This document shows positions 4,801 through 56,012 of a stretch of 64,000 nt of DNA, in pieces. The notes beneath the pieces were generated by a model. The model was given only the letters and a program-made list of their open reading frames with translations, ran no database searches and was not told the origin of the DNA. Numbering within the stretch: position 1 is the stretch's first letter; each line of letters begins with the position of its first letter. This DNA comes from Gemmobacter lutimaris. GTDB taxonomy: Bacteria > Pseudomonadota > Alphaproteobacteria > Rhodobacterales > Rhodobacteraceae. Location: the NCBI RefSeq assembly GCF_003570715.1, contig NZ_QXXQ01000014.1:1-64000 (forward strand), written 5' to 3'. The position numbers and the translations under genes were made by a program.

Positions 4801-4946
4801 TGCGTCTGCTGGACGACGCAGGACTATGGAACCGGATATCCACCCATGCGCGGGAACTGGTCGAAGATGTATACTCCTTTACAAAAGGACGGAAGGATAT
4901 GCGCCACGCCTTCGAAACCGTTGATATTTTCGGGATGCTCGAATAA
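1818..4946 (+). CDS. Two-domain glycosyltransferase (GT2 + GT4)
   Basis: A 1042-aa cytoplasmic glycosyltransferase. Residues 1-400 are a beta-rich region with no motif I recognise. A GT2 (GT-A) domain begins at about 410 with VSIIIPAHN, followed by VDDASSDET, the DXD-like LLNNDTEP (about 493-500) and the acceptor-side EDTDLAFKVREAGF, as in rhamnosyltransferase-like GT2 enzymes. The last third (about 670-1042) is a GT-B/GT4 domain with LSFLGSFRHDPNEEG and the nucleotide-sugar end region PLLSGAGIKGKVLGALAHG. ATG 1818 starts the conserved protein; a GTG at 1758 would add 20 unsupported residues. A GC stem-loop (CCCGGC/GCCGGG, about 1738-1753) precedes it. Two glycosidic bonds could be made by one chain; donors are unknown. 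Confidence 0.85.
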   Translation: MLSDHISYVALSGSDLFVKAAPVAMERGLHATVGEAMIALEPLGAEKMFRAAVEITPEELDEADIILNGLEDWAAEGTRTYQIQFKNRERSRTLPLGSPVALAEGLPSITIGTYIAGHRAAATLEVEILDATGQVLERAGVDLQPNMQGGRTLDLYQKIDLTLPLTDKAHKVALVLNYLSTNAPGSSHDPYVFLVEPVLSTDPGAQLSHQTMLHQGPDLVDAGWFRATVPSVRAGAAGLDLVVGDQRMTILAPPPQSNIRLLRDDGHSLCFQASEPVDARLFLNGRSICACRIEPDDSWLRLPAQALTGEPARLEIRDSAGLRTLYETWILPPRVLTPTEVLQRETSRPFPVQMFSQSAKRYEALRAHLEAGSPPEVLAQLAHAIDTLEAGYDNLKLRPLTLPEVEEPEVSIIIPAHNKVKVTYAGLCALLLAWNRTSFEVILVDDASSDETATIERLVSGLKVVRNVEPQRFIRACNAGVAASRGKYVVLLNNDTEPTTGWLDELRDTFDRFDKVGMVGSKLIYPDGTLQDAGGIIWGSGNPWNYGNRQNPWDPRFCYARQADYLSGAALMMPRDLWDRIGGLSQYLEPMYFEDTDLAFKVREAGFSTWFMPTSIVYHYEGMTSGTSTASGFKRFQEVNRPKFKRRWSRAFANHGREGELPDLEKDRGCIGRVLFIDYMLPRPDQDAGSYAAIQEIRLVQSLGFKVTFLPENIADLGHYTTELQRMGVEVITAPFVLSVNEFLEARGREFDAFYLTRYHVAENVTSTLRRINPQARIILNNADLHFLRVMRKMLTNKGMEQISDVDMLRNRELAAMRSVDLVLSYNEVEHAVIQSHTNGAVKVAKCPWVVQAPATVPERQGRKGLSFLGSFRHDPNEEGVLWFTSEVMARLANTRPETVLSIYGSGMNDRIRNLASPQIDPVGFIETLDLAYDRHMAFVAPLLSGAGIKGKVLGALAHGIPCVLSPVAAEGIGLRSGYDCLIANTPAEWESAILRLLDDAGLWNRISTHARELVEDVYSFTKGRKDMRHAFETVDIFGMLE

Positions 4947-5062
4947 GGGGGGGAATTCAAGGAAGCGACATCATTCTATCAATGGTTGCCGCACTTGCTG
5001 AAATTTAGGGCAGGGTAGAGGCGCGGTTCCCGCGGCCGGTCCCGGCATTCAGGGGGCACAGG

Positions 5063-5764
5063 TTGCGAACCGTCGTTCTGCACTACCATTTGTTCAAAAA
5101 TGCGGGCACGTCGCTCGATGCAGTTCTCAAGCGTAATTTCGACGATGCTTGGGTCACGCAGGAATTTCCGGCCATGTCCGGTAACAACAGCGCGCTGGTC
5201 GCGGACTGGATCGCAGGCAGCCCGAAGGGCGCTGCCTATTCCTCCCATACAATGACCGGCCCGCTGCCGGAGATCGAAGGGGTCCGTGTCATTCCGGTGA
5301 TACTTCTACGGGATCCGTTGACACGTATCCGCTCGGCCTATCAGTTCGAAAGACGGCAGGTGGCCAATACGCTGGGCACCCAGCTGGCCAGGGCCCATGA
5401 CTTCGAGGGCTATGTCCGCGCCCGTCTGGAGGTTGCAGGCGACCGCCAGTGCCGTAACTTTCACACCACCATCCTCGCCCGGATGATCCCGGGTGCGGGG
5501 GACGAGTTGACGCGGGCCAAGGCCTCGGTCAGCAGGCTGCGGGACGCCGGCGTGGTCGGCCTAGTCGCGCGCTTCGACGAGACGATGGAGCGGCTGACCA
5601 AACGGCTCCGACCGGTCTGGCCGTCATTCGACTGGCAGCAAACTCGAGCGAATACCTCTGAAAAGGCCGATCCGGTCGAGATGAACCCCGCGTTGGAGGC
5701 GCTTCTGCGCGAGGCCAATGCTCAGGACATTGCCCTGCTGGACTGGGTGAAGGCAACATTCTGA
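5063..5764 (+). CDS. Sulfotransferase family 2-like protein
   Basis: A 233-aa protein with the PAPS-binding layout of carbohydrate sulfotransferases: a 5'-phosphosulfate loop FKNAGTSLD at residues 11-19 and a 3'-phosphate strand LLRDPLTRIRSAY at about 80-93. The HYHLFKNAGTS start resembles the heparan/chondroitin-type Sulfotransfer_2 group rather than the estrogen-type family. The start is TTG 5063, preceded by AGGGGG about six bases upstream; no in-frame ATG lies closer to the PAPS loop. It lies between two glycosyltransferase genes, so the acceptor is probably a sugar hydroxyl of the locus polymer. First of nine sulfotransferase-like genes here. Confidence 0.8.
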   Translation: MRTVVLHYHLFKNAGTSLDAVLKRNFDDAWVTQEFPAMSGNNSALVADWIAGSPKGAAYSSHTMTGPLPEIEGVRVIPVILLRDPLTRIRSAYQFERRQVANTLGTQLARAHDFEGYVRARLEVAGDRQCRNFHTTILARMIPGAGDELTRAKASVSRLRDAGVVGLVARFDETMERLTKRLRPVWPSFDWQQTRANTSEKADPVEMNPALEALLREANAQDIALLDWVKATF

Positions 5765-5827
5765 ACAGGGCCGCCGGGCCGCACATCCAGTAGGCATTTC
5801 ATTCGTTTCCGTCAGGGATGCCAGCAC

Positions 5828-8416
5828 ATGAAGATTCTCGTCTTGGGCAATTGTCAGGCCCGCCCCGTCTCGCAGCTTCTCGGTCTGGCGACCGGAGCCA
5901 CGATGCTGGAGCCGGTGGTGCTGCATCTTGCCCGGTCCGAGGAAGCGCCCGTGCATGAGGCCCGGATGCGGGAGGTAGATCTGATTGTCGCGCAGGCGAC
6001 ACAGGACGCCTTTTCTCCCGCCCATGTCGCCTCGTCGGGTATCCGGGCGCGACATGCTGGCAAGGTGCTGGTCTGGCCCAACCTATTCTATGCTGGCCAG
6101 CAACCCTGGCTGCGCTATGTCACCCATGCACGGCTGGGTCGCATCCTCGGGCCGCTCGACACCTATCACGACCTGCGCATCCTCGGGGACTGGTATCAGG
6201 CTCGCACCGGACACAACCCACTGCCTGTGATCAACCCCGATGCGGTGACGCGCTGCGCGCTGGACGATCTGCGCCTGCGCGAGGCGAACTGCGATGTGAT
6301 CGTCTCCGACCTGATCGAGGCCGAAGCGCACCGGCGGCCGCTGTTCTTCACCTTCAATCATCCTGCCAACTGGCTGCTGCACCGGCTGGTGCAGCGGGTC
6401 TGCGACCGGGCCGGCCTGATCCCGCGCCCCTTCACACCGCCGGAGCAGGAGCCGCTGGCGCGGATCGTGCCGCCATCGCTCTGGCACGGGCCGGACAGCG
6501 GCTTCCCGCTTCAGGGGCTGCTCCCCGATCTGCAGCAGTCTGGAGTTCATCTGCCCGATCCGCCGGAACGCCTGGACATGTCGCAATTGCGCGATTGGAG
6601 CTTCGCCTGCTACGACCGGCAGGCTGAGGCCTTGCAGGATCATGCCAACCTACGATTTACACCACAGATGCCGACCATGCCCGCCTCTGAAGGCTCGGCG
6701 CAAGCCGTCTGGGTATCCACCCGCAAAACTATCTTGTTCGAGACGGAAAACCTAGTCTGCATCCTGCATGACCGTGGCAGCGACCAACTTGTCATGACCT
6801 TCGCCGGGTCCGGCCTTCGGCCACAGCGCAACCGGGTCTGGGCCGAAGAGCCGCTGGAAAAGCTCGGCTGCTCCGTGCTTGGATTCGTGGCGAAAGCACC
6901 GAACTGGTATCCGCAGCGCGATATGCAACGGGCGATTGACCATCTCGCGAATGACCCTGCATTGCAGGGCTTTAAAAGGCGGTTGGGTTATGGCTCCAGC
7001 ATGGGGGGATATGCCCTGTTGCGCTACGGCAAAGCGCTGCAACTGGACATGGCCTTCGTTCTGGCACCGCAATGTTCGATTGACCCGGCGGACATCACGG
7101 ACCCTCGTTTCAACAGGTTCTTCGATCCAGCACTGCATCCGGCCATGAAGCTTCAGCCTCAGGACATCGATTTCCCCGTAGTCGCCCTTTTCGATCCACT
7201 TGATGTGGTCGACAATGCCCATATGCGTGAAATCACCCGCTCCGGGGAGGTCGTTCCGCTGCCCGTGCGCAATGCTGGCCATGTCGTCGCCGAGCTTGTG
7301 GCCGGAACGGAGCGGCTGGCTCGTGTCCTGCATAATCTTGCCAGCGGAAACATCGTCGGCTTGCGCCATGATATCCAACGCTGGCGCCGCGGCGCCCTCA
7401 CCCGCCCGCTGCGTGTCGCCTTGCAGGCCAGCAGACGGCACAAGGCAACCGCCTTTCGTATCTTCAAGACAAGATGTGCGGCAATAGACCCCGGGGGCTG
7501 GGCCAATATCCTGCTGCCACTTTGCCAGGCGGGTTACGGGGCACAGTTGCAAGACGAGATGCGCCGGGCGCTGGAGAAAACCCCGGAAAACCATGTTCTG
7601 CTGCTTGCCCATGCGGTTGCCTGCCGTCAGGCGGGCGATGAGGATAGGGCCATGGAATATGCTCGCCACGCGCATCGCCTGCATCCCGGACAATTCAGCA
7701 CCTTCTTTCTCGAACGGCACGGGAAAGCCGCAGCCCGCACGCCTGCCCGGCCGGAGCAGCCCACGCCCATTCCCGCTCCTATTGAAAACCTCTGCCGCAA
7801 TGTGATGCTCTACTGGGCCGATGACACGCCACCGCCCTCGGTGCGCGATGTGGTCGGACAATGGCAGGAGATCTATGCGGACTGGACGGTGACACTTTTT
7901 TCGCAAGCCTCGGCCGGGGCTTGGTTGCAGGACCGATGCGGCGTCGAAATCGCCCGGCTGTTCAGGAAATGCCGACTACCCGCGATGCAGGCGGATTTCT
8001 TCCGGGTATTCTGGGCAATAGAGGAGGGTGGGATCTACAGCGACATCACCCTCGCCCCTCTAGTCTGCCCGGGTTTCGCAGCGACAGGCAAAGATCTGGT
8101 CGTCATGCGGCGCTTCCATGGCCGGATCGTGAACAGCATTTTTTATGCCCGGAAGGGCTCTGCCGATCTCAAACAGGTTGCCTATCATATCCTGCAGGCG
8201 ATGAGCCTGCAAACCGACCAGAATGTCTGGAGCGTAACCGGCCCCGGTGCCTGGATCGCGGCGCTGGGACAGGAGGAGACGACGACGCTGGGCATCATCC
8301 CCGATCAGGAGATGTATGAGACATATGTCAAGCGCTCAATGTATCAGGCCTCGACGCGCGGCAGCAGCCAGCACTGGTCGCAGGATCAGCTGACAGCCTC
8401 AATCTACCTAGGATAG
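5828..8416 (+). CDS. Fusion: WcbI-like acyltransferase + alpha/beta hydrolase + TPR-like + GT32-like domain
   Basis: An 862-aa protein of four joined parts. Residues 1 to about 265 look like WcbI, a capsule-associated CoA-binding putative acetyltransferase: start MKILVLGNCQARP and a conserved FFTFNHPANWLL. Residues about 285-510 look like an alpha/beta hydrolase with nucleophile elbow GYGSSMGGY (387-395, Ser391) and a candidate catalytic histidine in NAGHVVAEL (His485). About 540-640 is a helical TPR-like segment. From about 655 the end resembles GT32 enzymes (MLYWADDTPPPSV, QADFFRVFWAIEEGGIYSDI). The usual GT32 DXD is degenerate (YSDIT, Asp739), so transferase activity is uncertain. Likely role: adding and trimming acyl groups and adding a sugar on the polymer. 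The fusion itself is unfamiliar. Confidence 0.72.
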   Translation: MKILVLGNCQARPVSQLLGLATGATMLEPVVLHLARSEEAPVHEARMREVDLIVAQATQDAFSPAHVASSGIRARHAGKVLVWPNLFYAGQQPWLRYVTHARLGRILGPLDTYHDLRILGDWYQARTGHNPLPVINPDAVTRCALDDLRLREANCDVIVSDLIEAEAHRRPLFFTFNHPANWLLHRLVQRVCDRAGLIPRPFTPPEQEPLARIVPPSLWHGPDSGFPLQGLLPDLQQSGVHLPDPPERLDMSQLRDWSFACYDRQAEALQDHANLRFTPQMPTMPASEGSAQAVWVSTRKTILFETENLVCILHDRGSDQLVMTFAGSGLRPQRNRVWAEEPLEKLGCSVLGFVAKAPNWYPQRDMQRAIDHLANDPALQGFKRRLGYGSSMGGYALLRYGKALQLDMAFVLAPQCSIDPADITDPRFNRFFDPALHPAMKLQPQDIDFPVVALFDPLDVVDNAHMREITRSGEVVPLPVRNAGHVVAELVAGTERLARVLHNLASGNIVGLRHDIQRWRRGALTRPLRVALQASRRHKATAFRIFKTRCAAIDPGGWANILLPLCQAGYGAQLQDEMRRALEKTPENHVLLLAHAVACRQAGDEDRAMEYARHAHRLHPGQFSTFFLERHGKAAARTPARPEQPTPIPAPIENLCRNVMLYWADDTPPPSVRDVVGQWQEIYADWTVTLFSQASAGAWLQDRCGVEIARLFRKCRLPAMQADFFRVFWAIEEGGIYSDITLAPLVCPGFAATGKDLVVMRRFHGRIVNSIFYARKGSADLKQVAYHILQAMSLQTDQNVWSVTGPGAWIAALGQEETTTLGIIPDQEMYETYVKRSMYQASTRGSSQHWSQDQLTASIYLG

Positions 8417-8554
8417 AAAAATCCAATGAGTTGGCCTATTATCGAGCCGCCGGGAGCAGATCTACACAAAGTATTCCGCCATGGTATTGTACTGGTGCAT
8501 TGATCCCATTCAAATGAACGGAGTTGAAGCGGTTGGTCACCACAGCATGACACC
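8417..8554. other. Gap between the left polysaccharide genes and the transfer module
   Basis: These 138 bases separate the converging fusion gene and the minus-strand transfer operon. I see no strong hairpin, no T-run terminator and no credible open frame. The base composition is more A/T-rich than the flanks. It is a plausible junction where the transfer module was joined to the polysaccharide genes, but no repeat or attachment site is visible. Confidence 0.4.
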
Positions 8555-8776
8555 TCAGGTCCCATCTAGATCGGTCACAACAGTGCAATTCTTCGCGCGC
8601 CGTTTGTTCTGCGTGTACCAGACAGTTTTTCGCGTGCCGGTCTGGCTGAACTCGTAGGTGACACCGAGAACCTTGTCGGGATGATGTGGGTCGACCATCC
8701 ATTCGACGGGATTGCCCACGTCGTATTCCGCTGCTAGCTGGAGGCAGGTGCGGGCGTCTGGCTTGTGGTCTGTCAT
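8555..8776 (-). CDS. Small hypothetical protein, third gene of the virC-like operon
   Basis: A 73-aa soluble protein that I do not recognise. Its ATG overlaps the stop of the VirC2-like gene by ATGA (8773-8776), so it is probably translated by coupling and is a real gene. The sequence is polar, with EWMVDPHHPDK and a basic patch TQNKRRAKN near the C-terminus and no membrane segment or signal peptide. Position suggests an accessory part of the DNA-transfer module. An alternative is a truncated remnant left at the module border. Confidence 0.5.
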   Translation of the reverse strand: MTDHKPDARTCLQLAAEYDVGNPVEWMVDPHHPDKVLGVTYEFSQTGTRKTVWYTQNKRRAKNCTVVTDLDGT

Positions 8777-9450
8777 TCTGCTTTCCCTCCGGGTTTCATC
8801 TGACGCTCCGCCTTTTCCAGAGCCACATCGAAGGCCTCGTGGAACCGGGCGCGGTAGGCCGGGCCCATGACGCGCGCCAGACCCATGAGGCCCAGCGGAT
8901 CATGCCGGGCGGCCAGATCGGTGGCGAACTGCTGTCGCAGGGTCAGGGTCACGCTGGTCGGATGTTTGCCCCGCACCCCGCGCGGCTCGGTGACCTCCGG
9001 CATGCCATCGCGCGCCCAGTCATCAAAGACCTGATCGCGCAGGGCTTGCGCTACGCGGCGGATCAGGAACCGGACCGGGCACCGGGCTGCCGCAGCCCAG
9101 ACCTCCGCCCGCGCCGCCTGACGGGGTGTCAGCGAGACCGCGACATAAACGACCTGCCCGCGGGCGGCGGGGGGCTGGGCAGAGGCTGCGGAATGTATGG
9201 GGGGTGTTACGGCGGCCGGAGGTTCACCCTCCTCTTTCCGGGCTTCTTCCCGGATGCGACCGGGCCGCCCGCCGTCATCGCCTTGCGGCATGACCTCTGC
9301 GCTGTCGATTGTGGCGGGCGGCACCTTTGGGGACGGCGGTGCTGGCGTTTCGGCGACCGGCCCCTCTCCACCCGCCGTACCAAATCCGAGCTTGGCCGAG
9401 AAGCCTGCATCCTGCCGGATGATCCGCATCTGATCCTTGCGCGGCGCCAT
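8773..9450 (-). CDS. VirC2-like relaxosome accessory protein
   Basis: A 225-aa protein. The first 100 residues are Pro/Ala/Glu-rich and probably disordered. The C-terminal part starts at VVYVAVSLTPRQAA and contains RFLIRRVAQALRD, consistent with a ribbon-helix-helix-like DNA-binding fold. It ends with HDPLGLMGLARVMGPAYRA, which resembles the end of Agrobacterium VirC2 as I remember it (DPLGL followed by alternating helices). Its start overlaps the stop of the VirC1-like gene by one base. With VirC1 it would bind an overdrive-like enhancer near the nick site and promote relaxosome assembly. The assignment rests on the DPLGL motif, size and gene order. Confidence 0.62.
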   Translation of the reverse strand: MAPRKDQMRIIRQDAGFSAKLGFGTAGGEGPVAETPAPPSPKVPPATIDSAEVMPQGDDGGRPGRIREEARKEEGEPPAAVTPPIHSAASAQPPAARGQVVYVAVSLTPRQAARAEVWAAAARCPVRFLIRRVAQALRDQVFDDWARDGMPEVTEPRGVRGKHPTSVTLTLRQQFATDLAARHDPLGLMGLARVMGPAYRARFHEAFDVALEKAERQMKPGGKAE

Positions 9451-10175
9451 CAGGCGACCTCTGCCGGGGACAGGATCGACTGGTCGATCTCATCGAGAAG
9501 CGCGCCTGCCTCCGTCACGGCGGCCTGCAGATGCGCGGCCAGCCCGCGGTTCGGGGTCTTGTCGGCGATGACACCGAGAAGTCCCTCCCTGTCCATCCGG
9601 ACATAGGCGCTGCGGTTCGAGAGCCAGGCCTCACAGGCGGGCAGGGAGCGGAACAATTCCTCCGCCACGAGACGTTCAGTCTCTGACAACCGTGCGGGCA
9701 CCCGGCTGAGGATCACCGAGAAACTGGCCAATGCCTCCGGCCTGTCGATCCGCTGGCGCAGGGTCAGATACCAGCGGGCGGTTTCCATGGTCTCGCTGAG
9801 ATCACCGCGCGACAGCATCATCGGACAGACGATGCGGTGGGCCGCGACTGCCAGCATATCCTGGGCCTCCGACCCGCCGCCGAAGGTGTCGATCAGGATC
9901 AGATGCTCCTGATCCGGCTGTTCGTAGATCTGGTCAATCGCCTCGGCGACCCGGTGGGCATCGAGCGTATGAATCACCGCGACGGAAGGGGACCAGTGGC
10001 CCGCCGTCTGCCCGGCCCGCATCCAGTTCAGACAGGATTTCGAACTGTCGGTGTCGAAGATGGTCACCGTCTCGCCGCGGGCCACTGCGGCTGACGCGAG
10101 GGCGCGGCAGAGCGTGCTTTTGCCTGATCCGCCCTTCCTGTTCATCACCAGCACAACCCGTATTCCGTATTCCAT
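9450..10175 (-). CDS. VirC1-like ParA/MinD-family ATPase
   Basis: A 241-aa P-loop ATPase with the deviant Walker A NRKGGSGKST at residues 12-21, the switch-region FDTDSSKSCLNW at about 40-51 and a Walker B-like LILIDTFGGG. Length and layout fit VirC1 rather than plasmid ParA, which usually has an extra N-terminal helix-turn-helix. No parB lies next to it; instead a VirC2-like gene follows directly and virD1/virD2-like genes are divergent. A GGGAAAGG Shine-Dalgarno lies about five bases before ATG 10175. Known VirC1 recruits the relaxosome to the cell pole and stimulates strand transfer. A partition role is the main alternative. Confidence 0.75.
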   Translation of the reverse strand: MEYGIRVVLVMNRKGGSGKSTLCRALASAAVARGETVTIFDTDSSKSCLNWMRAGQTAGHWSPSVAVIHTLDAHRVAEAIDQIYEQPDQEHLILIDTFGGGSEAQDMLAVAAHRIVCPMMLSRGDLSETMETARWYLTLRQRIDRPEALASFSVILSRVPARLSETERLVAEELFRSLPACEAWLSNRSAYVRMDREGLLGVIADKTPNRGLAAHLQAAVTEAGALLDEIDQSILSPAEVA

Positions 10176-10273
10176 CGCACCTTTCCCACATTCTACATGT
10201 CCTGCGGCATTTCTCTGAATGCCGGAGGCCGAATTCCTTTATCATAATGCGCATCCCTTTATTCCGATCCCGC

Positions 10274-10284
10274 AGGCCGGATAT
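10274..10284 (-). other. Candidate nick (nic) site
   Basis: On the minus strand this reads ATATCCGGCCT. The nick core of T-DNA borders and IncP-type oriT sites is ATATCCTG followed by C, so only one core base differs. It lies 99 bases upstream of the virC1-like start and close to the direct repeats. A short degenerate word like this can occur by chance, so this is only a candidate. Confidence 0.25.
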
Positions 10285-10321
10285 CAGAATGCGCCCCGCG
10301 AAAAACGTAATGCGCAAGTCC

Positions 10322-10369
10322 TTTGTCTTTTATCCCTTGCCTGATGACCGGATGCGTTTGTCTTTTATC
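10322..10369 (+). repeat. 13-bp direct repeat pair, overdrive-like
   Basis: TTTGTCTTTTATC occurs at 10322-10334 and again at 10357-10369, a 35-bp period. The second copy is preceded by GATGCG, giving TGCGTTTGTC, reminiscent of the TGTTTGT core of Ti plasmid overdrive. Proximity to virC1/virC2-like genes makes an enhancer or relaxosome-binding role plausible. Iterons or regulator half-sites are alternatives. Confidence 0.45.
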
Positions 10370-10630
10370 TGATCGCGCAATGCGTGTGGCGCAATTCACA
10401 AGACCTGACGCGCTTCCCTGATGCCATACCCCGCATCCCACCTGTCCTTTCTCCGATCCAGGGTACGGAATTCCTGGGTTCAAATAAAACAAAAACAATG
10501 CATTACTGCATGTATCATTCAGGAAGCCCGCCTTGTTGCGATGCCCGCAGGGACATCGTATCGGCCAGTTTCCGGTGCCGCCCGTGATCCGTGACAGGCC
10601 TCGGGTAATGGATGGATGCCCTAAGGTCAA

Positions 10631-10667
10631 CACAATCACAGATTTAATTGATCCCCCGTTGATTGTG
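10631..10667. promoter_or_regulatory. Inverted repeat upstream of the virD1-like gene
   Basis: CACAATCA at 10631-10638 and TGATTGTG at 10660-10667 are exact inverted repeats separated by 21 bases, and similarity continues weakly outward. The pair lies just before the virD1-like start. It could be an operator for autoregulation by the VirD1-like DNA-binding protein or part of oriT; relaxase origins usually carry such an arm pair. Confidence 0.4.
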
Positions 10668-10681
10668 CTTGATTGGAAAGA

Positions 10682-11260
10682 ATGGAGGGGAATAGGAAGG
10701 GTGGCAAGAAATGCGATGTGTCTACAAATATTCGGTGGATGAGGTCTGTGGTAAAATATGACGCGCATGGAAAAGACCGGAATTCGGATGGGGCGGAGAG
10801 GAATGCCGTTGATCCGGTGCCCCGGAAATCCGCCGGGCGCGGGTGCCCCCGGTCGGCGGATCGGGGACAGGTCGTCAGCTGCCGTCTGCCGGCTGAAGAG
10901 CTGCGAGCCTTCGATGCGCTTTGCGTGCAGCTTGGCGCGAAATCCCGCTCGGACGGGGTGCGGTCGGTCGTGCGGATGGCCTCGGGCTTCCTCGAGTTCA
11001 GCAGGGAGGACAGCGCGCGTCTGGAGGAGATCCGCTACGAGCTGGCGAAGATCGGTACCAATGTGAACCAGATCGCGCTGGCGGCGAACCGGGGCCGGGC
11101 GCCGATGGTGCGGGCGCAATGGGCCACGGTCGGGGAACTGCGGCGATCCTTGCCGGTCGTGGCGCGGGTCCTGAACCAGATCATCGCAGAACGTCGGCGG
11201 CAGGGCGTGGCGCTGTTCCGCAAGTTTGCCGAAGGTCAGGAAGGCGCGCGCCATGGTTAA
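10682..11260 (+). CDS. VirD1/MobC-like relaxosome accessory protein
   Basis: A protein of up to 192 aa with a variable basic N-terminus and a conserved core from VVSCRLPAEELRAFDAL through SRSDGVRSVVRMASGFLEF to EIRYELAKIGTNVNQIA and AANRG. This core is typical of VirD1 and MobC-type proteins, which bind oriT DNA and assist relaxase nicking. The start is uncertain: ATG 10682, ATG 10739 or GTG 10748 are all in frame and none has an ideal ribosome site; conservation begins well downstream of all three. Its stop overlaps the relaxase start (ATG 11253), indicating translational coupling. It opens the plus-strand arm of the divergent transfer module. Confidence 0.72.
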   Translation: MEGNRKGGKKCDVSTNIRWMRSVVKYDAHGKDRNSDGAERNAVDPVPRKSAGRGCPRSADRGQVVSCRLPAEELRAFDALCVQLGAKSRSDGVRSVVRMASGFLEFSREDSARLEEIRYELAKIGTNVNQIALAANRGRAPMVRAQWATVGELRRSLPVVARVLNQIIAERRRQGVALFRKFAEGQEGARHG

Positions 11261-13079
11261 GCCTGGTTCGCGTCCTGTTGGCCTCGCTCAGGCGGTTCTG
11301 GGTGAGCTTGAAGTGCTGCGGCCTCGGCAGGGGCGGGTGAAGGCGGGGGTATCCTCCCCCTCCCGGCAGGGCTTCCGGTTCTCAGCGCGGGCCAGCCAGA
11401 TGTGGCGCTTTGCCCTCGGCTCGCATGCCGCGGTCATCAAGAAGATCGGCAGGGGCGGTACGGCCAATGCGAAGGAGTTGGCGGCGCAGATGGACTATCT
11501 GTTCTCGAAATCGGCCGCGATCTTCGGCAATGGCGTCGTGCTGGATGCAGATGCCAAGGGTCTAACCAAGGACGAACGGAACGAGATCGTCGGCGACTGG
11601 GTGGAGGATTGGCGAGGGTCGCCCAGGAACGGGCACACCAGTCATCTGCTGCTGAGCTTTCCGTCCCATGTCCGTCCCGCAAAGGCGAAGCTGATCGCCG
11701 AGGCCTGGGCCTTCGAGATGTTCCAGTCGGGCGAACATCAGGACGATGTCTGGTCCTATGTCGCGGCGCTGCATACCGACCGGGCGCATCCGCATGTCCA
11801 TATCGTGGTGAACAACCGGGGCACGCTGAACGACGGCTGGTTCTTCATGGCCAAGGAGCATGCGTTCAACCTCGACAGGATGAAGGACCGCATGGTGGCC
11901 ATCGCGGCCGAGGAAGGCGTGTTCCTCGATGCCACGTCCCGGGCGGAGCGGGGGCTGCTGACCTATGGCCCGTCGCGCGCTGAGATCGAGCAGGCACGGA
12001 CGGAAGGCCGGGCGCCGGAAGAACGACCGCGCGAGGGCCGGGCGCTGGAGGATGCGCTGGCCACTCTGGCGCGTGCGGCCGACACCATGCGCAGCCTGCA
12101 CCATGTCGCGGCTCTGACCGGGTTGCCGGAGATCGGGGAAAAGATCGCCGAAGCGGAGGAGGTACTTCGGCGGGGCGGGGTGCTGCATCCTTTCCCGGCC
12201 GAGGCGGCGACGCTTGAGCGCGCTGATCTGGATCTGCACTTCAGCGGCTGGATGACGGAGACAGAAGCCAGGATCCGCAAGGCACCCATGGCCGAGCGGA
12301 AGGACCTGCGGGATGAGCTTTATGGCTATGCCGTCGACATCGCGCGTGGGCTTGGTGATACCCGCGGCGCGCAGCTTCTGCAGATGATGCCGCAGTCGGC
12401 GGTTTACGGCATGGCGCTCGATGGCGATGTCCTGATGCGGGGGCGTGTGGAAACGACCCTGCAGCCCGGGGCGGCGGAGCGGCTGCGCGCGGAGATCGTG
12501 GCCAGCGCGAGTGCAATTGGCCTGAGCGGCGATCGTATCGCCAGCCGTCTGGAAACGGGCGCGGCGAACGCCTGGGAAGAGCGGGATTGGGTCCGGAGTG
12601 ATCTTTTGGTCCTCGCCGGACGGCGGCGGCTGGACCTGCGCAATCCGGAGCAGGGACGGCGCATTGCCGGGGACCTGCAGGCCTTTTATGACAAGTCTGC
12701 CCAATTGATCGATCATGCTGCTACCCACGAGGTCGTGCAGAAAAATGACCGACTGGTCTGCACGCTGCGCTCAATGGGACGGATCATGCAGGCCGAGGGC
12801 AAGGTCGAGTTCCGCAACGATACCCATGCCGAGCGGTTCGCGGCGGAATTGCGGGCGCGGTATGGGGCGGGCATCGTGACAGACCTCACCGCAGGCCGGA
12901 CAGATGCCTTGGCGCAGGATGTCGGGGACGAGGCCGATCGTCACTGGATCGCCCGCGCAGTGGTCTCAGCCGCAAGGTCGCATGTGGCCTTCGGGTTGAT
13001 GCTGAAAGAGGCGACGGTGGCGGAGCGGCAGTTAAGCGATGTGCGGGAACCCACCGACACAAAGGATTGGGAGCAGTGA
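11253..13079 (+). CDS. VirD2-like relaxase (MobP type)
   Basis: A 608-aa relaxase that would nick oriT and stay covalently bound to the transferred strand. A candidate nucleophile is Tyr82 in AAQMDYLFSK. The metal-binding histidine motif is clear: HTDRAHPHVHIVVNNRG from residue 174, as in the HxDxxHPHVHxxxN signature of MobP/VirD2 relaxases, and HTSHLLLSFPSH lies just before it. The C-terminal half is helical and shows no helicase motifs. ATG 11253 is chosen because it overlaps the previous stop and follows AGGAAGG by a few bases. No VirD4 coupling protein or VirB channel is present, so any mobilisation would need machinery in trans. Confidence 0.85.
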   Translation: MVKPGSRPVGLAQAVLGELEVLRPRQGRVKAGVSSPSRQGFRFSARASQMWRFALGSHAAVIKKIGRGGTANAKELAAQMDYLFSKSAAIFGNGVVLDADAKGLTKDERNEIVGDWVEDWRGSPRNGHTSHLLLSFPSHVRPAKAKLIAEAWAFEMFQSGEHQDDVWSYVAALHTDRAHPHVHIVVNNRGTLNDGWFFMAKEHAFNLDRMKDRMVAIAAEEGVFLDATSRAERGLLTYGPSRAEIEQARTEGRAPEERPREGRALEDALATLARAADTMRSLHHVAALTGLPEIGEKIAEAEEVLRRGGVLHPFPAEAATLERADLDLHFSGWMTETEARIRKAPMAERKDLRDELYGYAVDIARGLGDTRGAQLLQMMPQSAVYGMALDGDVLMRGRVETTLQPGAAERLRAEIVASASAIGLSGDRIASRLETGAANAWEERDWVRSDLLVLAGRRRLDLRNPEQGRRIAGDLQAFYDKSAQLIDHAATHEVVQKNDRLVCTLRSMGRIMQAEGKVEFRNDTHAERFAAELRARYGAGIVTDLTAGRTDALAQDVGDEADRHWIARAVVSAARSHVAFGLMLKEATVAERQLSDVREPTDTKDWEQ

Positions 13080-13159
13080 GCAAGGCGAAGGCTGTTCTGG
13101 TCAGGGAGCGGGACCTGATGAACAGCGCCCCCTCAGTGACGCTCAGCATATTGCCCTGA
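13076..13159 (+). CDS. 27-codon ORF coupled to the relaxase, possibly a truncated gene remnant
   Basis: GTG 13076 overlaps the relaxase stop (GTGA) and has AAAGGA about nine bases upstream. It opens a 27-residue frame beginning MSKAKAVLVRERDLM and ending at TGA 13157-13159. The good ribosome site and coupling suggest that translation starts here, but the product is too short to recognise. It may be the start of a former downstream transfer gene cut off where the XRE genes were joined. Chance is possible. Confidence 0.28.
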   Translation: MSKAKAVLVRERDLMNSAPSVTLSILP

Positions 13160-13177
13160 CGAGGTGCTGGTTGTGCT

Positions 13178-13432
13178 CTACTCGGTTGGGCGGCAGGCTG
13201 GGCTTACCCTGTCCTCGTCCTTCGATGACCGTTTGAGCAGATCAGCTGCTTCTATTCCAAGCTCCCTTGCCAGGCGATCAACAACGTCAATGCTGGCGTT
13301 ATACAGGCAGCGCTCCAAGGCGCTGATGTAAGTTCGATCCAGTCCCGCGCGATAAGCAAGTTCCTCCTGTGATAACCCCCGGGACCGGCGGATCACTCTC
13401 AGATTGCGTGCAAATATCTCTCGGATTTCCAT
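13178..13432 (-). CDS. XRE-family transcriptional regulator (short)
   Basis: An 84-aa Cro/CI-type helix-turn-helix protein. The DNA-binding domain covers about residues 8-62, with RRSRGLSQEELAYRAGLDRT (helices 1-2) and YISALERCLYNASIDVVDRL (recognition helix and helix 4). There is no room for an effector domain. The start at 13432 lies 18 bases from an exact inverted repeat (13451-13485), so autorepression is likely. It converges on the relaxase operon. No toxin-like partner is adjacent, arguing against a toxin-antitoxin pair. Its targets could include the transfer genes or the neighbouring sulfotransferase genes. Confidence 0.82.
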   Translation of the reverse strand: MEIREIFARNLRVIRRSRGLSQEELAYRAGLDRTYISALERCLYNASIDVVDRLARELGIEAADLLKRSSKDEDRVSPACRPTE

Positions 13433-13450
13433 GATCGCGAGAGCTATTCC

Positions 13451-13485
13451 TTGAAGAGTATTTATCTACGGAGTATACTCTTCAA
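13451..13485. promoter_or_regulatory. Operator-like palindrome with nested 10-bp palindrome
   Basis: TTGAAGAGTAT (13451-13461) and ATACTCTTCAA (13475-13485) are perfect 11-bp inverted repeats with a 13-base spacer. GAGTATACTC (13471-13480) is a second, exact palindrome overlapping the right arm, giving three GAGTAT half-sites. It lies just upstream of the minus-strand XRE gene and 160 bases before the plus-strand one. The best reading is the binding site of one of the two regulators. A further small hairpin AGCGTG-CTT-CACGCT lies at 13533-13547. Confidence 0.65.
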
Positions 13486-13645
13486 AAAGGTATCTGAACG
13501 ATTGTAAGGTAAATATGAGTTGAGTACGATCAAGCGTGCTTCACGCTCGAGAAAAGTGGCAGGTCAGGCGGATCACCGGATTGCCTCTGCTTTATTGCCT
13601 TGGCGATACAGGTAGTGGCTTGCTGAGCAGGAAGGGTGGCGCCGA

Positions 13646-14002
13646 GTGACACATGAAATAGATCATCTCGTCGGTCGGCGCATTCGGCAAAGACGGTGGT
13701 TCACGGGTCTTACACAGCAGGAACTGGCCGAAAGTGTTGGCGTCAAGTTCCAGCAAATCCAGAAATATGAGACGGGCGCCAACCGGGTTAGCGCGTCACG
13801 GCTTTGGATGATCGGGGAAAGCCTAGAAGCCCCTGTCTCCTATTTCTTTACCGACGATGCCTGTACCTCAGCCTCGTGCGGCCAGAAATGGCAGCCTGAG
13901 TTACCTCCAAAAGATCTCATGCTTCTGGTTAAGCTTTTCAGCAGGCTTTCCAGCGATCAAAAGGAAGCACTTCTAGGGCTGGCCAGAACCATGGCGATAT
14001 AA
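13646..14002 (+). CDS. XRE-family transcriptional regulator
   Basis: A 118-aa helix-turn-helix protein of the alphaproteobacterial XRE type. Residues about 9-65 carry RRIRQRRWFTGLTQQELAES and VGVKFQQIQKYETGANRVSA, with ASRLWMIGESLEAPVSYFF closing the domain. The C-terminal 45 residues form a short amphipathic tail (LMLLVKLFSRLSSDQKEALL), probably for dimerisation. The start is GTG 13646 after AGGAAGG. This protein style resembles rhizobial and rhodobacteral regulators in which the KFQQIQKYE helix reads the operator. It is divergent from the other XRE gene and shares the 213-bp control region with it. Confidence 0.85.
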   Translation: MTHEIDHLVGRRIRQRRWFTGLTQQELAESVGVKFQQIQKYETGANRVSASRLWMIGESLEAPVSYFFTDDACTSASCGQKWQPELPPKDLMLLVKLFSRLSSDQKEALLGLARTMAI

Positions 14003-14056
14003 GGGATATCCAGCGCATCAGAATCCTTCCCACGGCCAACCTTCCGCCGCACGCCA

Positions 14057-14095
14057 GAGTGCCGTAGGCATGGCACTCCCGTTTCGCGCTACGGG
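14057..14095. terminator. Two adjacent stem-loops between converging genes
   Basis: GAGTGCC (14057-14063) pairs with GGCACTC (14072-14078) around an 8-base loop. Then CCCGT (14078-14082) pairs with ACGGG (14091-14095), followed by an A/T-rich stretch. They lie between the XRE gene ending at 14002 and the sulfotransferase gene ending at 14186 from the other strand, so a weak bidirectional terminator is plausible. The two structures share one base and may compete. No clean T-run follows. Confidence 0.35.
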
Positions 14096-14185
14096 TGACA
14101 TTTTAGAACATGACCGCTACACCAAGTTTATCAGATAAGGTTAATTATGTAATACATATGAGCCGTGCCCGCCTGACGGCCACCG

Positions 14186-15043
14186 TCAGACAGCGGGCGA
14201 TGGCGGTGGCACGGCGGGCAAGGGCTCCGAGACGATGTGATGGGCCAGGGTGTTGTTGCGGCTTGACCAGAAGGCGAGATCGGCGAATTGCCGGAAAAGT
14301 TCGGGCGGCAGGATCGACCGGCGGCTGCGGTATTCCACCCGGCCGCGCACAGTATGCAACCCCGGTGCCATCATCTGCGTGTCGAATTCCTCGGCCTGAT
14401 ATTCGACATGTTCGAAATCATGCGCGAACCAGGGTTCGCCGATGAACTGGTAGATCAGCTTCATCGTCTCCTGCGGCCGCGCGGTCAGCAGGTCATAATC
14501 GACCAGCAGCAGCGCCCCTGCCTCGTTGCCCCAATAGGCTTCCTTCAGCGCGGTCAGGGCCGAGCCGATCATCCGGTTGCGTCCCAGAAGCGCTTCGGCC
14601 CGCGCATAGACCGAACTGCGCTCGGCCGGGTTCGAGAACATGCGCGACACGTCGAAGGCATTGCGCCGGATCAGGCTTTCCACCGAATCGAGCACCCAGC
14701 CGGGATTGCGGACGCAGCAGATCACCTTCGCGCCGGGAAACAGTTGCAGCAGTGCCGGCAGGCGGCTGGTCCACATCCGGTTGGTGTCGAAGACCAGGCG
14801 GTCGGGGCCGCGGTCGCGGTAATAGGCGTCGAAGGTCGCCATCAGGATGTCGCGCTTGTGCTGTTCGGTCAGGAAGACGGAAAATTCGTTCTCGGGGCCC
14901 ATCGCCGTGAGACAGGCATTGAAGATGGTGCCGACCGGACTCGACATCGCGGCGTCGAAGGCCGGATTCTGGCGCAGGATGGCGGAAAGCAGGGTCGAAC
15001 CGGAGCGGGGCAGGCCGGAAATGAAATGGATCTTGCGCATCAT
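14186..15043 (-). CDS. Sulfotransferase (Sulfotransfer_3-like)
   Basis: A 285-aa protein with a textbook 5'-phosphosulfate loop GLPRSGSTLL at residues 10-19 and a 3'-phosphate motif CCVRNPGWVLDS with Arg at about 112. The middle holds MSSPVGTIF and a conserved RLVFDTNRMW, as in the PAPS-dependent sulfotransferase group common in marine and rhodobacteral genomes. ATG 15043 (tandem ATG 15040) is chosen because GGGAAAG lies just upstream; an earlier in-frame start at 15070 lacks a ribosome site. It is transcribed away from the next sulfotransferase gene at 15258. Confidence 0.85.
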   Translation of the reverse strand: MMRKIHFISGLPRSGSTLLSAILRQNPAFDAAMSSPVGTIFNACLTAMGPENEFSVFLTEQHKRDILMATFDAYYRDRGPDRLVFDTNRMWTSRLPALLQLFPGAKVICCVRNPGWVLDSVESLIRRNAFDVSRMFSNPAERSSVYARAEALLGRNRMIGSALTALKEAYWGNEAGALLLVDYDLLTARPQETMKLIYQFIGEPWFAHDFEHVEYQAEEFDTQMMAPGLHTVRGRVEYRSRRSILPPELFRQFADLAFWSSRNNTLAHHIVSEPLPAVPPPSPAV

Positions 15044-15257
15044 GCTTTCCCGTATGAACCCCCCGAACATGCCGTTCCCGGTATCGGGCGGTCAATGGCC
15101 TTGCACCGCCTGACCGCACCGCCTGACCTCACCGCCGGGGCACCGCGGCTTGAAACCGCAGGGCAAACACGCGATGACAGGGCGGATTGATGGCCGCAGA
15201 GGGCCGGAATTTGATATGCCCGGCGCCGGACAGGCCCCGTGCAGAAAGGATAGTGCC

Positions 15258-16343
15258 ATGACGGACCGCCCCCGCCTGATCGTGCATATCGGGGCCGGCA
15301 AGACCGGCTCCAGCTCGATCCAGCTGACCCTGTCGAACAATGCGGCGGCGCTTGCGGCGCAGGGGGTGAAATATCTGGGCCTGATGCTGGAACATGCGGT
15401 GACGCAGACCGGCCGGGACTGGCAGCGCACGCCCGGCTCTCCCGCGTTCTTCGCCGGGGCAGAGCCCCCAGCGAACCATGCGCAGGATCTGGAGCGCATC
15501 CTGTCGGACGAGCTGGCCGCCGCGTCTGACGCGGGTCTGCATACGCTGATCTGGAGCAATGAATGGATGTACAGCCGGCACGACCGCGTGCTGGAGGCGT
15601 TGCTGCGCCTGCGCGCGGCGGGCCATCCGGTGCAGGTGATCTGCTATCTGCGCCGCCACGACAAATGGGTACAAAGCGCCTATACGCAATGGGGCCTGAA
15701 GAACAAGACCTATCCGGGGCCGATCCGGCCTTATGGCGCGTGGAAACAGGGGCGTTCCTTCGCCCAGATGCCGGCGGTGCAGCCCTGGATCGACGCTTTC
15801 GGACTGGATTGCCTGCTGTTCAATTTCGACGCGGTGGGCGATGTGGTGACGCATTTCAACGCCCGGCTCGGCCTGACCGGCCTCGTGCCGGAAAACGACA
15901 ATATCTCGCCCGACGCGGCTGAACTGGCGGCCTGGAGCGTCTATAACAACCGGTTTGACGAGGTGATCGCGGCGGGCCGCTTTCCGCAACTGCTTCAGCC
16001 CACGCTGGCGCAGGATGCGCTGAAGGCGCGTCTGCCACCGCTGGATGCGCTGATGCCCACGCCCGAGGATCTGGCCCGTGTGGTCGAGGAAAATGCCGCG
16101 GATATCGCGGCGCTGAACGCGGCCTTCGCGGCGCGGGGCGAGGCGGCGCTGCGCTTCGACAGCCCGGCGCGGCAGAGCCAGCATCCCGCCCCCTGGGAGA
16201 TGGACCAGTTCATGCTGAAGATGATCTTCGCGTTGCAGGAACAGATCATGGGGCTGCGCGCCCGCCTTGCCAGGGCCGAGGCCGCACTGGCGCAGGAGGG
16301 CAAGACCCCCCTGCCCCCGAAGGCCACCCCCCCGAAAGGCTGA
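15258..16343 (+). CDS. Sulfotransferase-like protein, paralogue of 40113-41189
   Basis: A 361-aa protein with the P-loop-like PAPS motif VHIGAGKTGSSSIQ at residues 9-22 and a second basic motif CYLRRHDKWVQSAYTQWGLK. It aligns along its whole length with the protein at 40113-41189: shared KYLGLMLEHA/HYLGLMLEHA, IWSNEW, LRRHDKW/VRRHDKW, and a C-terminal PWEMDQFMLKMIFAL/PWEMDQLMLKLIFAL helix leading to a coiled coil. ATG 15258 follows AGAAAGGA; an upstream in-frame ATG at 15150 would add 36 unconserved residues. Sulfation of a polysaccharide is inferred; the family also holds proteins of unproven activity. Confidence 0.75.
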   Translation: MTDRPRLIVHIGAGKTGSSSIQLTLSNNAAALAAQGVKYLGLMLEHAVTQTGRDWQRTPGSPAFFAGAEPPANHAQDLERILSDELAAASDAGLHTLIWSNEWMYSRHDRVLEALLRLRAAGHPVQVICYLRRHDKWVQSAYTQWGLKNKTYPGPIRPYGAWKQGRSFAQMPAVQPWIDAFGLDCLLFNFDAVGDVVTHFNARLGLTGLVPENDNISPDAAELAAWSVYNNRFDEVIAAGRFPQLLQPTLAQDALKARLPPLDALMPTPEDLARVVEENAADIAALNAAFAARGEAALRFDSPARQSQHPAPWEMDQFMLKMIFALQEQIMGLRARLARAEAALAQEGKTPLPPKATPPKG

Positions 16344-16383
16344 GGCGGGCACCGGGGGAGCGCCCCCGGCCCCGTCAGGCCGC

Positions 16384-17481
16384 TCAGTCCACCGAACGCT
16401 GGATCATCTCTTCGTCGCAGATGATCTCCAGCCCCTTCTGGACGCTGGCGGTGAAATCGGCCGCCGGGGTTTTCGGCGCTGCCCTGGCGGGGGCCGCGCC
16501 GGGGGGCGTATCGGTGTAATGGCGCATGAACAGCCCCATCACATGTTCCACCCCTGCGGTTTCCACCTCGCGCAGGTCGGGGCCGTAATAGGCGCCCCGC
16601 GTGTAATTGCCGGTGATGACCTCGTAAGAGGGGAAATAGTGGCAGTCGGACAGGCTGTTGCGCAGTTCCTCGCAGGCCACGCGCAGCACCGCCTTGGAAT
16701 AGGCGGTGGCGGCGATCACGCTTTCCCCGGCCCGCGCCGTGGCGATCAGCGGCACCGGCGAGACGGTCATCAGGATCTTCACGCCGGGATTCACCGCCCG
16801 CATCATGCTGGCGAATTCGGTGAAATCCGCGATGGTCTCGGTCACCGAGAAATTGACGAATTCATGTTTCTCCGGGTCGAAGCTGCCCCCGGCCACCCCC
16901 GGCGCCAGCGGGAAGACCGCGCCATCGGCGCGCGCGCGCCAGCCTTCGGTCAGGCCGAAGGTGAAGACGAAGACATCCGCCTCGGCCATCATCCGGCGCA
17001 CCGCCGCAAAATGGGTTTCGCGGGCGGCGCGGAATTCCGACAGACTACAGAAGCCACCGGGCTGGATATTGGGGCGGAACGGGTCGATCAGCCGGCCATC
17101 CGCCGCCTCCCACACGTCTTCCAGCGGCGAGAAGCGGCCATGGGCGCGCTGCGCGAGTTGCAGAAGCTGGCGTGCGGTATAAAGGTTGCCATAGCGGGCC
17201 GAGAACACGCCATAACCATAGCGGCGGGCCACCTCGTCCGAAATCAGCGGATGCGCCTGTTCGGTGACGAAGTAATTGTAGCCCCGCGCCTGAAGGTGCC
17301 GGGCGATATGCTGGGCAAAGCAGCTTCCGGCCGTGGCAATGCGCATCTCGGGCTTCAGCCGGAATGCGCCCGACACCACCGGGTCGATCTCCGAGACCTC
17401 CCGGCCGCGATGGCTGCGCGACCAGAAGCAATGCGCCGGCAGTCCGGCATAGGGATTTGCGGGTTTTTCGGGGCGGGTCAT
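16384..17481 (-). CDS. GSCFA-domain protein
   Basis: A 365-aa protein named by its diagnostic motif AGSCFAQHIARHLQARGYNY at about residues 51-70. Further conserved blocks are FTFGLTEGW, LMTVSPVPLIAT and a C-terminal HYFPSYEVITG. The GSCFA family is SGNH-hydrolase-like and its biochemical role is unproven. The catalytic serine would be the Ser of GSCFA. Its start overlaps the stop of the SGNH-like gene (17478-17481, ATGA), so the two are co-translated. In this locus a role in adding or removing an acyl or other ester on the polymer is a reasonable inference. The last 50 residues are Ala/Pro-rich. Confidence 0.85.
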   Translation of the reverse strand: MTRPEKPANPYAGLPAHCFWSRSHRGREVSEIDPVVSGAFRLKPEMRIATAGSCFAQHIARHLQARGYNYFVTEQAHPLISDEVARRYGYGVFSARYGNLYTARQLLQLAQRAHGRFSPLEDVWEAADGRLIDPFRPNIQPGGFCSLSEFRAARETHFAAVRRMMAEADVFVFTFGLTEGWRARADGAVFPLAPGVAGGSFDPEKHEFVNFSVTETIADFTEFASMMRAVNPGVKILMTVSPVPLIATARAGESVIAATAYSKAVLRVACEELRNSLSDCHYFPSYEVITGNYTRGAYYGPDLREVETAGVEHVMGLFMRHYTDTPPGAAPARAAPKTPAADFTASVQKGLEIICDEEMIQRSVD

Positions 17482-55768: not shown

Positions 55769-56012
55769 AATCAATTTCCTTCGGCAAAGGATAGCCTGTT
55801 CCCTAGCCCAGCCATATCAGCATGACAACCCGCGTGTCGCGGGGGCTTGTGGAACCTCTCCGGCGCCTCCCATACTGGGCAGGATCGCACGCTTCGCAGC
55901 CGCAGATGTGTCAGAATGGCCGGCAGGTTTCCGCCCCCCGAAAGGCAGATGCCCGCCAATATGGCAAAAAATAGTGAACCCTGCCCACCGAAGGTGCCGA
56001 GGAGGTGAAAAA

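What the first reader, a model, noticed from the sequence alone, without database searches (positions are those of the whole stretch)
8555..13079. A stand-alone virC/virD-like DNA-processing module inside a polysaccharide locus
The sequence shows a ParA-like ATPase (KGGSGKST) followed by a protein with a VirC2-like DPLGL end on the minus strand. Divergent from them are a VirD1/MobC-like protein and a relaxase with HTDRAHPHVHIVVNN. In Agrobacterium the virC and virD operons are divergent in just this way. Here there is no VirB channel, VirD4 coupling protein, replication gene or T-DNA border pair nearby. It is unclear why a relaxosome kit sits between sulfated-polysaccharide genes. It may mobilise the biosynthetic locus itself using channels supplied in trans.
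Basis: partly seen in the sequence, partly recalled or inferred. Interest (0 to 1): 0.75.

Follow-up and report, generated by a model that had tools for sequence, protein, structure and literature searches.

The report
Relaxosome module on a polysaccharide plasmid
A five-gene kit that nicks and prepares DNA for transfer sits on what looks like a sugar-coat ("biofilm"-type) plasmid of a bacterium, and it probably lets that plasmid travel through secretion channels encoded by other plasmids in the same cell.

Summary
Window 8555-13079 holds a complete MOBP (VirD2-type) relaxosome: a 73-aa ORF, a tandem ribbon-helix-helix protein (VirC2-like by predicted fold, not by sequence), VirC1, and, divergently, MobC/VirD1 and a relaxase. 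Between them is a T-DNA-border-like putative nic site (10702-10727), present in 31 of 34 related loci scanned.
The "puzzle" largely dissolves. The 108-kb contig has its own replicon (PF10134 plus ParAB, 9-13 kb past the window) and a dTDP-rhamnose operon. A related Gemmobacter plasmid has the same replicon and similar sugar genes but no module. So the kit marks a mobilizable RepA/rhamnose plasmid, not a mobile sugar locus. The genome has two further modules, one beside a VirB/VirD4 channel, and VirD4 genes on two other contigs.
The real novelty: the relaxase's ~265-aa C-terminal domain is shared with a nuclease-less protein encoded between virB11 and virD4, the place next to virD4 where sampled relatives have the relaxase. 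I infer a channel-docking domain that lets relaxosomes use channels in trans; this is untested.
Verdict: new variant of a known kind. Warning: the window's nic site has a substitution seen in none of the other 30 sites.

The parts
8555..8776 (-). small conserved ORF (73 aa), third gene of the virC-side operon
   Evidence: a homologue beside virC2 in 27 of the 31 loci with a VirC2 hit; no Pfam hit
8773..9450 (-). VirC2-like protein, 225 aa: low-confidence, probably disordered N-half and C-terminal tandem ribbon-helix-helix (residues about 99-218)
   Evidence: best PDB fold match is TraY of the F relaxosome; no sequence-family hit
9450..10175 (-). VirC1-type ParA-like ATPase, 241 aa
   Evidence: PF07015 1.7e-24, 86.9 bits vs cut-off 24; PRK13849 84.9 bits, under its cut-off of 313
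10176..10701 (.). conserved intergenic region, candidate oriT / accessory-protein binding region with short repeats (e.g. TTTGTCTTTTATC x2)
   Evidence: alignment of 24 loci; repeats
10702..10727 (+). putative nic site TGGCAAGAAATGCGATGTGTCTACAA, T-DNA-border-like; predicted nick on the - strand opposite 10704/10705 (by recall of the Ti border)
   Evidence: pattern taken from the alignment, none expected by chance; found in 31 of 34 loci scanned, A at position 6 only in the window; 3 exact sites in the genome, one per module, with 1 match of the reversed-pattern control at up to 3 mismatches
10718..11260 (+). MobC/VirD1-type relaxosome protein (likely GTG start at 10718; the longest ORF starts at 10673)
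   Evidence: PF05713 24.7 bits over cut-off 23.2; VirD1 PRK13858 2.9e-11, under its cut-off
11253..13079 (+). MOBP relaxase, 608 aa; HTDRAHPHVH from residue 174, candidate catalytic Tyr82 (assignment by recall)
   Evidence: PF03432 38.8 bits over cut-off 24.6; VirD2 PRK13863 1e-24, under its cut-off; positions and dN/dS
12240..13034 (+). relaxase C-terminal domain, about 265 aa, shared with the protein encoded between virB11 and virD4
   Evidence: 39% identity, E 6e-46; five places in the genome; predicted mostly helical

Best explanation
The module is a VirC/VirD-type MOBP relaxosome that makes a RepA-type, rhamnose-operon polysaccharide plasmid mobilizable. Steps: (1) MobC/VirD1 and the relaxase bind the region between the operons and the relaxase nicks the border-like site at 10702-10727 (site shown by conservation; nicking inferred). 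(2) The tandem-RHH VirC2-like protein and the VirC1 ATPase bind repeats in the 0.5-kb intergenic region, raise relaxosome yield and carry it to a coupling protein (inferred from VirC1/VirC2). (3) The relaxase-DNA complex is taken up by a VirD4/VirB channel encoded on another replicon of the cell through the relaxase C-terminal domain, which is also carried by a nuclease-less protein encoded between virB11 and virD4 of those channels (sharing shown; docking role inferred). The unit transferred is the plasmid.
For: Families. Conserved divergent layout. nic site. Replicon with PF10134 and ParAB on the same contig. Related G. fulvus p5 has the same replicon and sugar genes; virC1, virC2, mobC and relaxase find nothing in it, and it is typed non-mobilizable. 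VirD4 on C14 and C19, VirB4 on C14, C7 and C8. Shared domain; relatives with a relaxase next to virD4. VirD4 in 7 of 8 module-bearing genomes tested (8 of the 16 behind), against 108 of 295 in the family (Fisher p 0.0055). C6 vs C19 dN/dS: relaxase 0.165/1.28, virC1 0.133/1.21. A sister module contig (C20) is 99.97% identical over 17.6 kb to one in Gemmobacter caeni, while one 6-kb sample of a 655-kb contig, presumed chromosomal, is 93% identical.
Against: No transfer data. The window's nic site alone differs (TGGCAAGA vs TGGCAGGA in the other 30 sites). The C-terminal domain matches no solved translocation-signal structure (top hit E 0.74) and no PDB sequence convincingly (one hit, E 0.36). 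In the one Paracoccus locus where it could be checked the middle protein is absent, so the domain is not always duplicated. Contig C6 shows no end overlap. The 7-of-8 count used genomes of my choosing, and the comparison sample is drawn differently; within the 295-genome sample 3 of 4 module carriers have VirD4. The fold match of the VirC2-like protein is weak (none at E 0.001 or better).
Confidence: 0.72

Rival explanations
1. Decaying remnant: the module was acquired, but the nic site has mutated and the plasmid is no longer mobilized.
For: The window is the only one of 31 sites with A at position 6 of the nic block. Intergenic repeats look more degenerate than in C19. A 196-bp piece 96% identical to window 10002-10197 lies alone in G. 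caeni, so decay of such modules does occur; L047 has only pieces.
Against: All five ORFs are open and dN is well below dS for the four genes tested. By recall, MOBP nick consensus tolerates C or T at that position of the cleaved strand; a search for that consensus found it in none of the ten papers listed.
Confidence: 0.15
2. The VirC1/VirC2-like pair is a second plasmid-partition system (ParA plus an RHH centromere binder) and the neighbouring relaxase is incidental.
For: NCBIfam ParA partition model scores 75.9 bits; the ATPase's only two PDB hits are ParF and ParA; RHH proteins can serve as centromere binders (recalled).
Against: The VirC1 models score higher; a separate ParAB lies beside the replication gene; the pair stays linked to mobC-relaxase across genera; the best fold match of the partner is TraY.
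Confidence: 0.07
3. An integrative mobilizable element that moves only the polysaccharide locus.
For: The module sits among polysaccharide genes; similarity to two Gemmobacter genomes ends at its edges.
Against: The contig has its own replication initiator and ParAB. I saw no integrase among the ORFs scanned beside the module, but made no dedicated search for one or for attachment sites.
Confidence: 0.03
4. A T-DNA-like system that delivers a defined segment between two borders.
For: VirC/VirD layout; the first 8 bases of the sites in the other loci equal the T-DNA border start (border sequence recalled).
Against: One site per module, no pair; the pattern for the Ti border itself found nothing in the window.
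Confidence: 0.02

Closest known systems
Agrobacterium Ti plasmid virC/virD operons (VirC1, VirC2, VirD1, VirD2)
   Same: Divergent layout (as recalled), VirC1 and VirD2-type families, RHH accessory protein, border-like nic core
   Different: Single nic rather than a border pair; far below the NCBIfam equivalog cut-offs; relaxase C-terminal domain shared with another protein of the channel locus; located on a polysaccharide plasmid
Rhodobacteraceae virD2-virD4 mobilization operons beside virB (PMC5613091, PMC9426580, PMC4886583: passages seen)
   Same: VirD2-type relaxase with a VirB/VirD4 channel; relaxases beside virD4 in family genomes carry distant versions of the C-terminal domain
   Different: Here the relaxase is in a separate virC1-virC2 / mobC-relaxase module, and a nuclease-less protein fills the place beside virD4
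[quoted passage not shown] 2016: not held, seen only in reference lists; PMC9426580 passage)
   Same: Rhamnose operon and a PF10134 initiator related to that of Phaeobacter inhibens plasmids
   Different: Carries a relaxosome module; the related G. fulvus p5 does not. Role in biofilm not tested
BID domain of alphaproteobacterial relaxases, toxins and Bartonella effectors (PMC6509941: passages seen)
   Same: A C-terminal domain shared by relaxases and other proteins of a VirB/VirD4 channel
   Different: About 265 aa rather than about 100; no sequence or fold match; no positively charged tail in the window's relaxase
F plasmid TraY
   Same: Relaxosome accessory protein, best fold match
   Different: MOBF system; no sequence match; long low-confidence N-terminus here

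Membership tests
MOBP / VirD2-type relaxase | Relaxase nuclease domain PF03432 over the curated cut-off | tested here: met
   38.8 vs 24.6 bits; NCBIfam VirD2 equivalog cut-off not met (88 vs 623 bits)
MOBP / VirD2-type relaxase | Three-histidine motif and upstream catalytic tyrosine | tested here: met
   HTDRAHPHVH from residue 174 read directly; Tyr82 in MDYLFSK, its catalytic role assigned by recall
MOBP / VirD2-type relaxase | Site-specific nick at a border/IncP-like nic | tested here: inconclusive
   Conserved border-like site; cleavage not testable; the window copy carries one substitution
VirC1 | Pfam VirC1 over cut-off | tested here: met
   86.9 vs 24 bits; NCBIfam equivalog cut-off not met (84.9 vs 313)
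VirC2 | Sequence similarity to VirC2 | tested here: not met
   No VirC2 hit in Pfam, NCBIfam or PDB, alone or as an 11-row set
VirC2 | C-terminal RHH fold | tested here: inconclusive
   Tandem RHH predicted, pLDDT of ten-residue blocks 76-94 in 101-220; best hits TraY (E 7.4e-3) and, further down, DndE (E 0.39), none at E 0.001; DndE is a fold relative of VirC2 2rh3; 2rh3 itself not among the 50 of 172 hits shown
VirD1 / MobC | Curated family match | tested here: met
   MobC PF05713 24.7 vs 23.2; VirD1 PF07328 23.7 vs 28.2 and PRK13858 43.5 vs 173, both under cut-off
T-DNA transfer system | Pair of border repeats | tested here: not met
   One site in the window, three in the genome, one per module
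RepA/rhamnose 'biofilm' plasmid | PF10134 replication initiator with ParAB, and rhamnose operon | tested here: met
   PF10134 2.5e-95; 71% to a protein annotated RepA-I; rfbA/rfbD/rfbB relatives 94/83/90% at window 52409-55202 and rfbC 84% at 55199-55774. Role in biofilm not tested
BID translocation-signal domain | BID sequence or fold | tested here: not met
   No BID family in the relaxase's Pfam scan at E 1 (that Pfam holds a BID model is recalled); no credible PDB fold match; model confidence moderate (pTM 0.51)

The most novel reading that the evidence does not exclude
The relaxase C-terminal domain is a new, non-BID docking signal for VirB/VirD4 channels. In the Gemmobacter/Rhodobacter lineage the ancestral virD2 gene beside virD4 was replaced by a nuclease-less LPD7-like protein that keeps the domain (perhaps itself sent to the recipient), while relaxases moved into stand-alone virC/virD modules scattered over plasmids. 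All modules would share the channels through one common tag, making sugar-coat plasmids mobile in trans.
Probability: 0.4. Interest if true: 0.68.

Novelty: new variant of a known kind. Interest (0 to 1): 0.5.

Why it matters
One paper states that mobilization of plasmids by another plasmid's channel is hypothesized but not conclusively demonstrated in Roseobacteraceae, and it scores mobilizable plasmids by mobQ relaxases (PMC13386836, passages). This genome offers a testable MOBP case: three modules, two VirD4 genes and a shared candidate docking domain. It also means that some RepA/rhamnose plasmids may be mobilizable, so surface polysaccharide traits could spread by conjugation.

Tried and rejected
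VirC2 by sequence: nothing in Pfam, NCBIfam or PDB, so claimed by fold only. Search for the Ti border pattern itself: none. Rfam at 8000-14000: nothing at gathering scores. PHROGs: a ParA-like family for the ATPase, plus weak hits. Promoter scan: 6 weak matches, not used; no terminator-like site. Fold search with the relaxase C-terminal domain: best hit a 14-3-3 protein, E 0.74, taken as noise. Search for C6's other genes in the module loci held: only an HTH gene and a ParA matched (E 1e-15), so the polysaccharide link is not a general trait of the module within the flanks held. ARAGORN reported one odd tRNA call at 56144, taken as spurious. A relaxase tree of 28 rows groups the window with C20 and L030 (100/99) but warns of long branches, and is not leaned on.

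Considered and dropped: T-DNA-like delivery, partition system, integrative element (see rivals).

Full report
What is there. Between window 8555 and 13079 lie five genes: on the minus strand, in order of transcription, virC1 (9450-10175), a 225-aa gene (8773-9450) and a 73-aa gene (8555-8776); on the plus strand mobC (likely 10718-11260) and a relaxase (11253-13079), whose start overlaps the mobC stop. The ATPase is over Pfam's VirC1 cut-off (1.7e-24), the relaxase over PF03432's, and the small protein just over MobC's. NCBIfam's best models are VirC1, VirD1 and VirD2, all far below their equivalog cut-offs. So these are relatives of the Agrobacterium proteins, not the same proteins.

The 225-aa protein. 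No sequence library names it, and an 11-row profile finds no VirC2 in the PDB. From 21 sequences AlphaFold2 gives strand-helix-helix-strand-helix-helix for residues 99-218 (ten-residue blocks at pLDDT 76-94) after a low-confidence N-half (mean pLDDT 67, pTM 0.52). The best PDB match is a chain of the F relaxosome (E 7.4e-3, probability 0.95, low TM-scores; none of 172 matches reaches E 0.001), identified as TraY. DndE appears at rank 11 (E 0.39). A paper describes VirC2 (2rh3) as an RHH fold with the same topology as DndE (PMC5425179, passages). 2rh3 was not among the 50 matches shown. I therefore call the protein VirC2-like in fold and place, not a member by sequence.

The nic site. Aligning 24 intergenic regions showed a block TGGCARGAAATGC-N4-TGTNTACAA at the start of mobC in all 24. 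A wider scan finds it in 31 of 34 loci: in all 27 with both virC1 and mobC and in four others; the three without it are L032 and L039, cut short, and L047, broken. In 30 of 31 the first eight bases are those of the T-DNA border (recalled); the window alone has TGGCAAGA. The pattern was drawn from these loci; in the window it occurs once, none expected by chance. The whole genome has three exact sites, one per module; the control, the pattern read backwards, gave one match at up to 3 mismatches. Upstream are short repeats that may bind the accessory proteins; they are clearer in C19 than in the window.

Setting. The window is part of contig C6 (108,257 bases), whose ends do not overlap. Beyond the window it carries ParA, a weakly matching ParB and a replication initiator (PF10134, 2.5e-95) at C6:73157-77195. 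The initiator is 79.5% identical to that of Gemmobacter fulvus plasmid p5, 71% to one annotated RepA-I and 63% to one on a Phaeobacter inhibens DSM 17395 plasmid. p5 shares with C6 the replicon, the rhamnose genes (rfbA 94%, rfbB 90%, rfbD 83%, rfbC 84%) and polysaccharide export genes. It is typed non-mobilizable, lists no relaxase (the gene table is incomplete), and virC1, virC2, mobC and the relaxase find nothing in its sequence. In G. caeni and G. caeruleus, similarity to window 4000-18000 is limited to window 8587-13080, apart from pieces under 150 bases. The kit is thus a discrete cassette on a RepA/rhamnose plasmid.

Not alone in the cell. The genome has three modules: C6, C19 and C20. 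C19 also has a virB8-virB11/virD4 cluster (names by similarity to annotated loci). VirD4 occurs on C19 and C14, VirB4 on C14, C7 and C8; on C7 and C8 it lies near the contig end. Of 8 module-bearing genomes that I chose from the 16 behind the 21 loci, 7 have VirD4; the eighth is the one whose module is broken (L047). In the family it is 108 of 295 (Fisher p 0.0055). Within that sample 4 genomes have the 225-aa protein and 3 of those 4 have VirD4.

The shared domain. Residues 339-603 of the relaxase ORF (617-aa numbering) are 39% identical (E 6e-46) to the C-terminus of a 727-aa protein encoded between virB11 and virD4 on C19; C14 has another. In plasmid records the domain occurs in 22 places in 19 records: the best place in each of the 19 is an annotated relaxase, and 3 records have a second place; the same 3 records hold full-length relatives of the 727-aa protein. 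That protein has no Pfam hit; part of its N-terminus resembles proteins annotated TraO primase or LPD7. A profile of the domain finds 47 matches in 37 of 295 family genomes, many weak or partial. Of the 30 loci fetched, 25 have a VirD2-type relaxase with VirD4 in the same stretch, 3 are relaxases of modules like the window's, and 2 (L083, L084) are relaxases without VirD4 in the stretch held (in one search my script picked the wrong strand for L087 and L090). One (L067) has a window-like nuclease domain (61%) beside a 73% VirD4, and its C-terminus is nearer to the 727-aa protein (42%) than to the window's relaxase (38%). My reading is that the nuclease half was replaced in this lineage while the C-terminal half stayed at the channel locus, which fits a docking role. 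In Paracoccus pYEE5 virB11 and virD4 are adjacent, with no such protein. BID domains are a precedent (PMC6509941, passages), but neither sequence nor fold links them to this domain.

Is it alive and mobile? C6 vs C19 dN/dS: relaxase 0.165/1.28, virC1 0.133/1.21, mobC 0.169/0.73, virC2-like 0.340/1.18. The C20 copy and its surroundings are 99.97% identical over 17,625 bases to a contig of Gemmobacter caeni, whereas one 6-kb sample of contig C1 (654,821 bases, presumed chromosomal) is 93% identical. This suggests recent transfer of a plasmid bearing a sister module, though only one such sample was compared.

What is known. Papers describe virD2-virD4 beside virB as the conserved rhodobacteral arrangement (PMC5613091 and PMC9426580, passages) and trans-mobilization as not yet conclusively demonstrated in Roseobacteraceae (PMC13386836, passages). 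Searches for VirC1/VirC2 with Rhodobacter (8 listed) or Paracoccus (13 listed), for T4SS with roseobacter and relaxase (20 of 22 listed), and for biofilm plasmids with relaxase or mobilization (10 of 889 listed) showed no title describing this module. The library is partial, and most listed papers were not opened.

Noticed in passing
L015:7444-9627 (C19) and L017:11999-14158 (C14): 719-727-aa proteins between virB11 and virD4: LPD7/TraO-like stretch in the N-terminal part plus the relaxase C-terminal domain, no relaxase nuclease. Annotated 'hypothetical protein' in Gemmobacter plasmids.
   Followed up: partly
window 10707: The window's nic block has A where the other 30 of 31 sites have G.
   Followed up: partly
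window 10718-13079 vs L016 (C20): mobC and the relaxase N-half differ from C20 by dS about 0.13, but virC1/virC2 by 0.9-1.0: a mosaic, suggesting recombination between module copies.
   Followed up: partly
L027 (Paracoccus yeei pYEE5): A VirC1-MobC-relaxase module sits beside the T4SS. Passages of the genome paper (PMC6209633; 12 of 24 places seen) name relaxases on four other replicons and a putative T4SS on pYEE5; it looks like a conjugation system.
   Followed up: no
L026 and L063 (G. fulvus p1 and p4): Lone relaxases of this type without annotated mobC or virC genes; both keep the nic block about 110 bases upstream.
   Followed up: partly
G. caeni contig C34:18288-18483 (G295): A 196-bp piece 96% identical to window 10002-10197 stands alone, possibly a remnant of a close relative of the window's module.
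   Followed up: no
window 13178-13432: XRE-type regulator beside the module, 49% identical over 65 aa to one just downstream of virD4 on C14.
   Followed up: no
L041:10001-10705: The VirC2-like gene of the Gemmobacter serpentinus locus carries an internal stop in the matched stretch.
   Followed up: no
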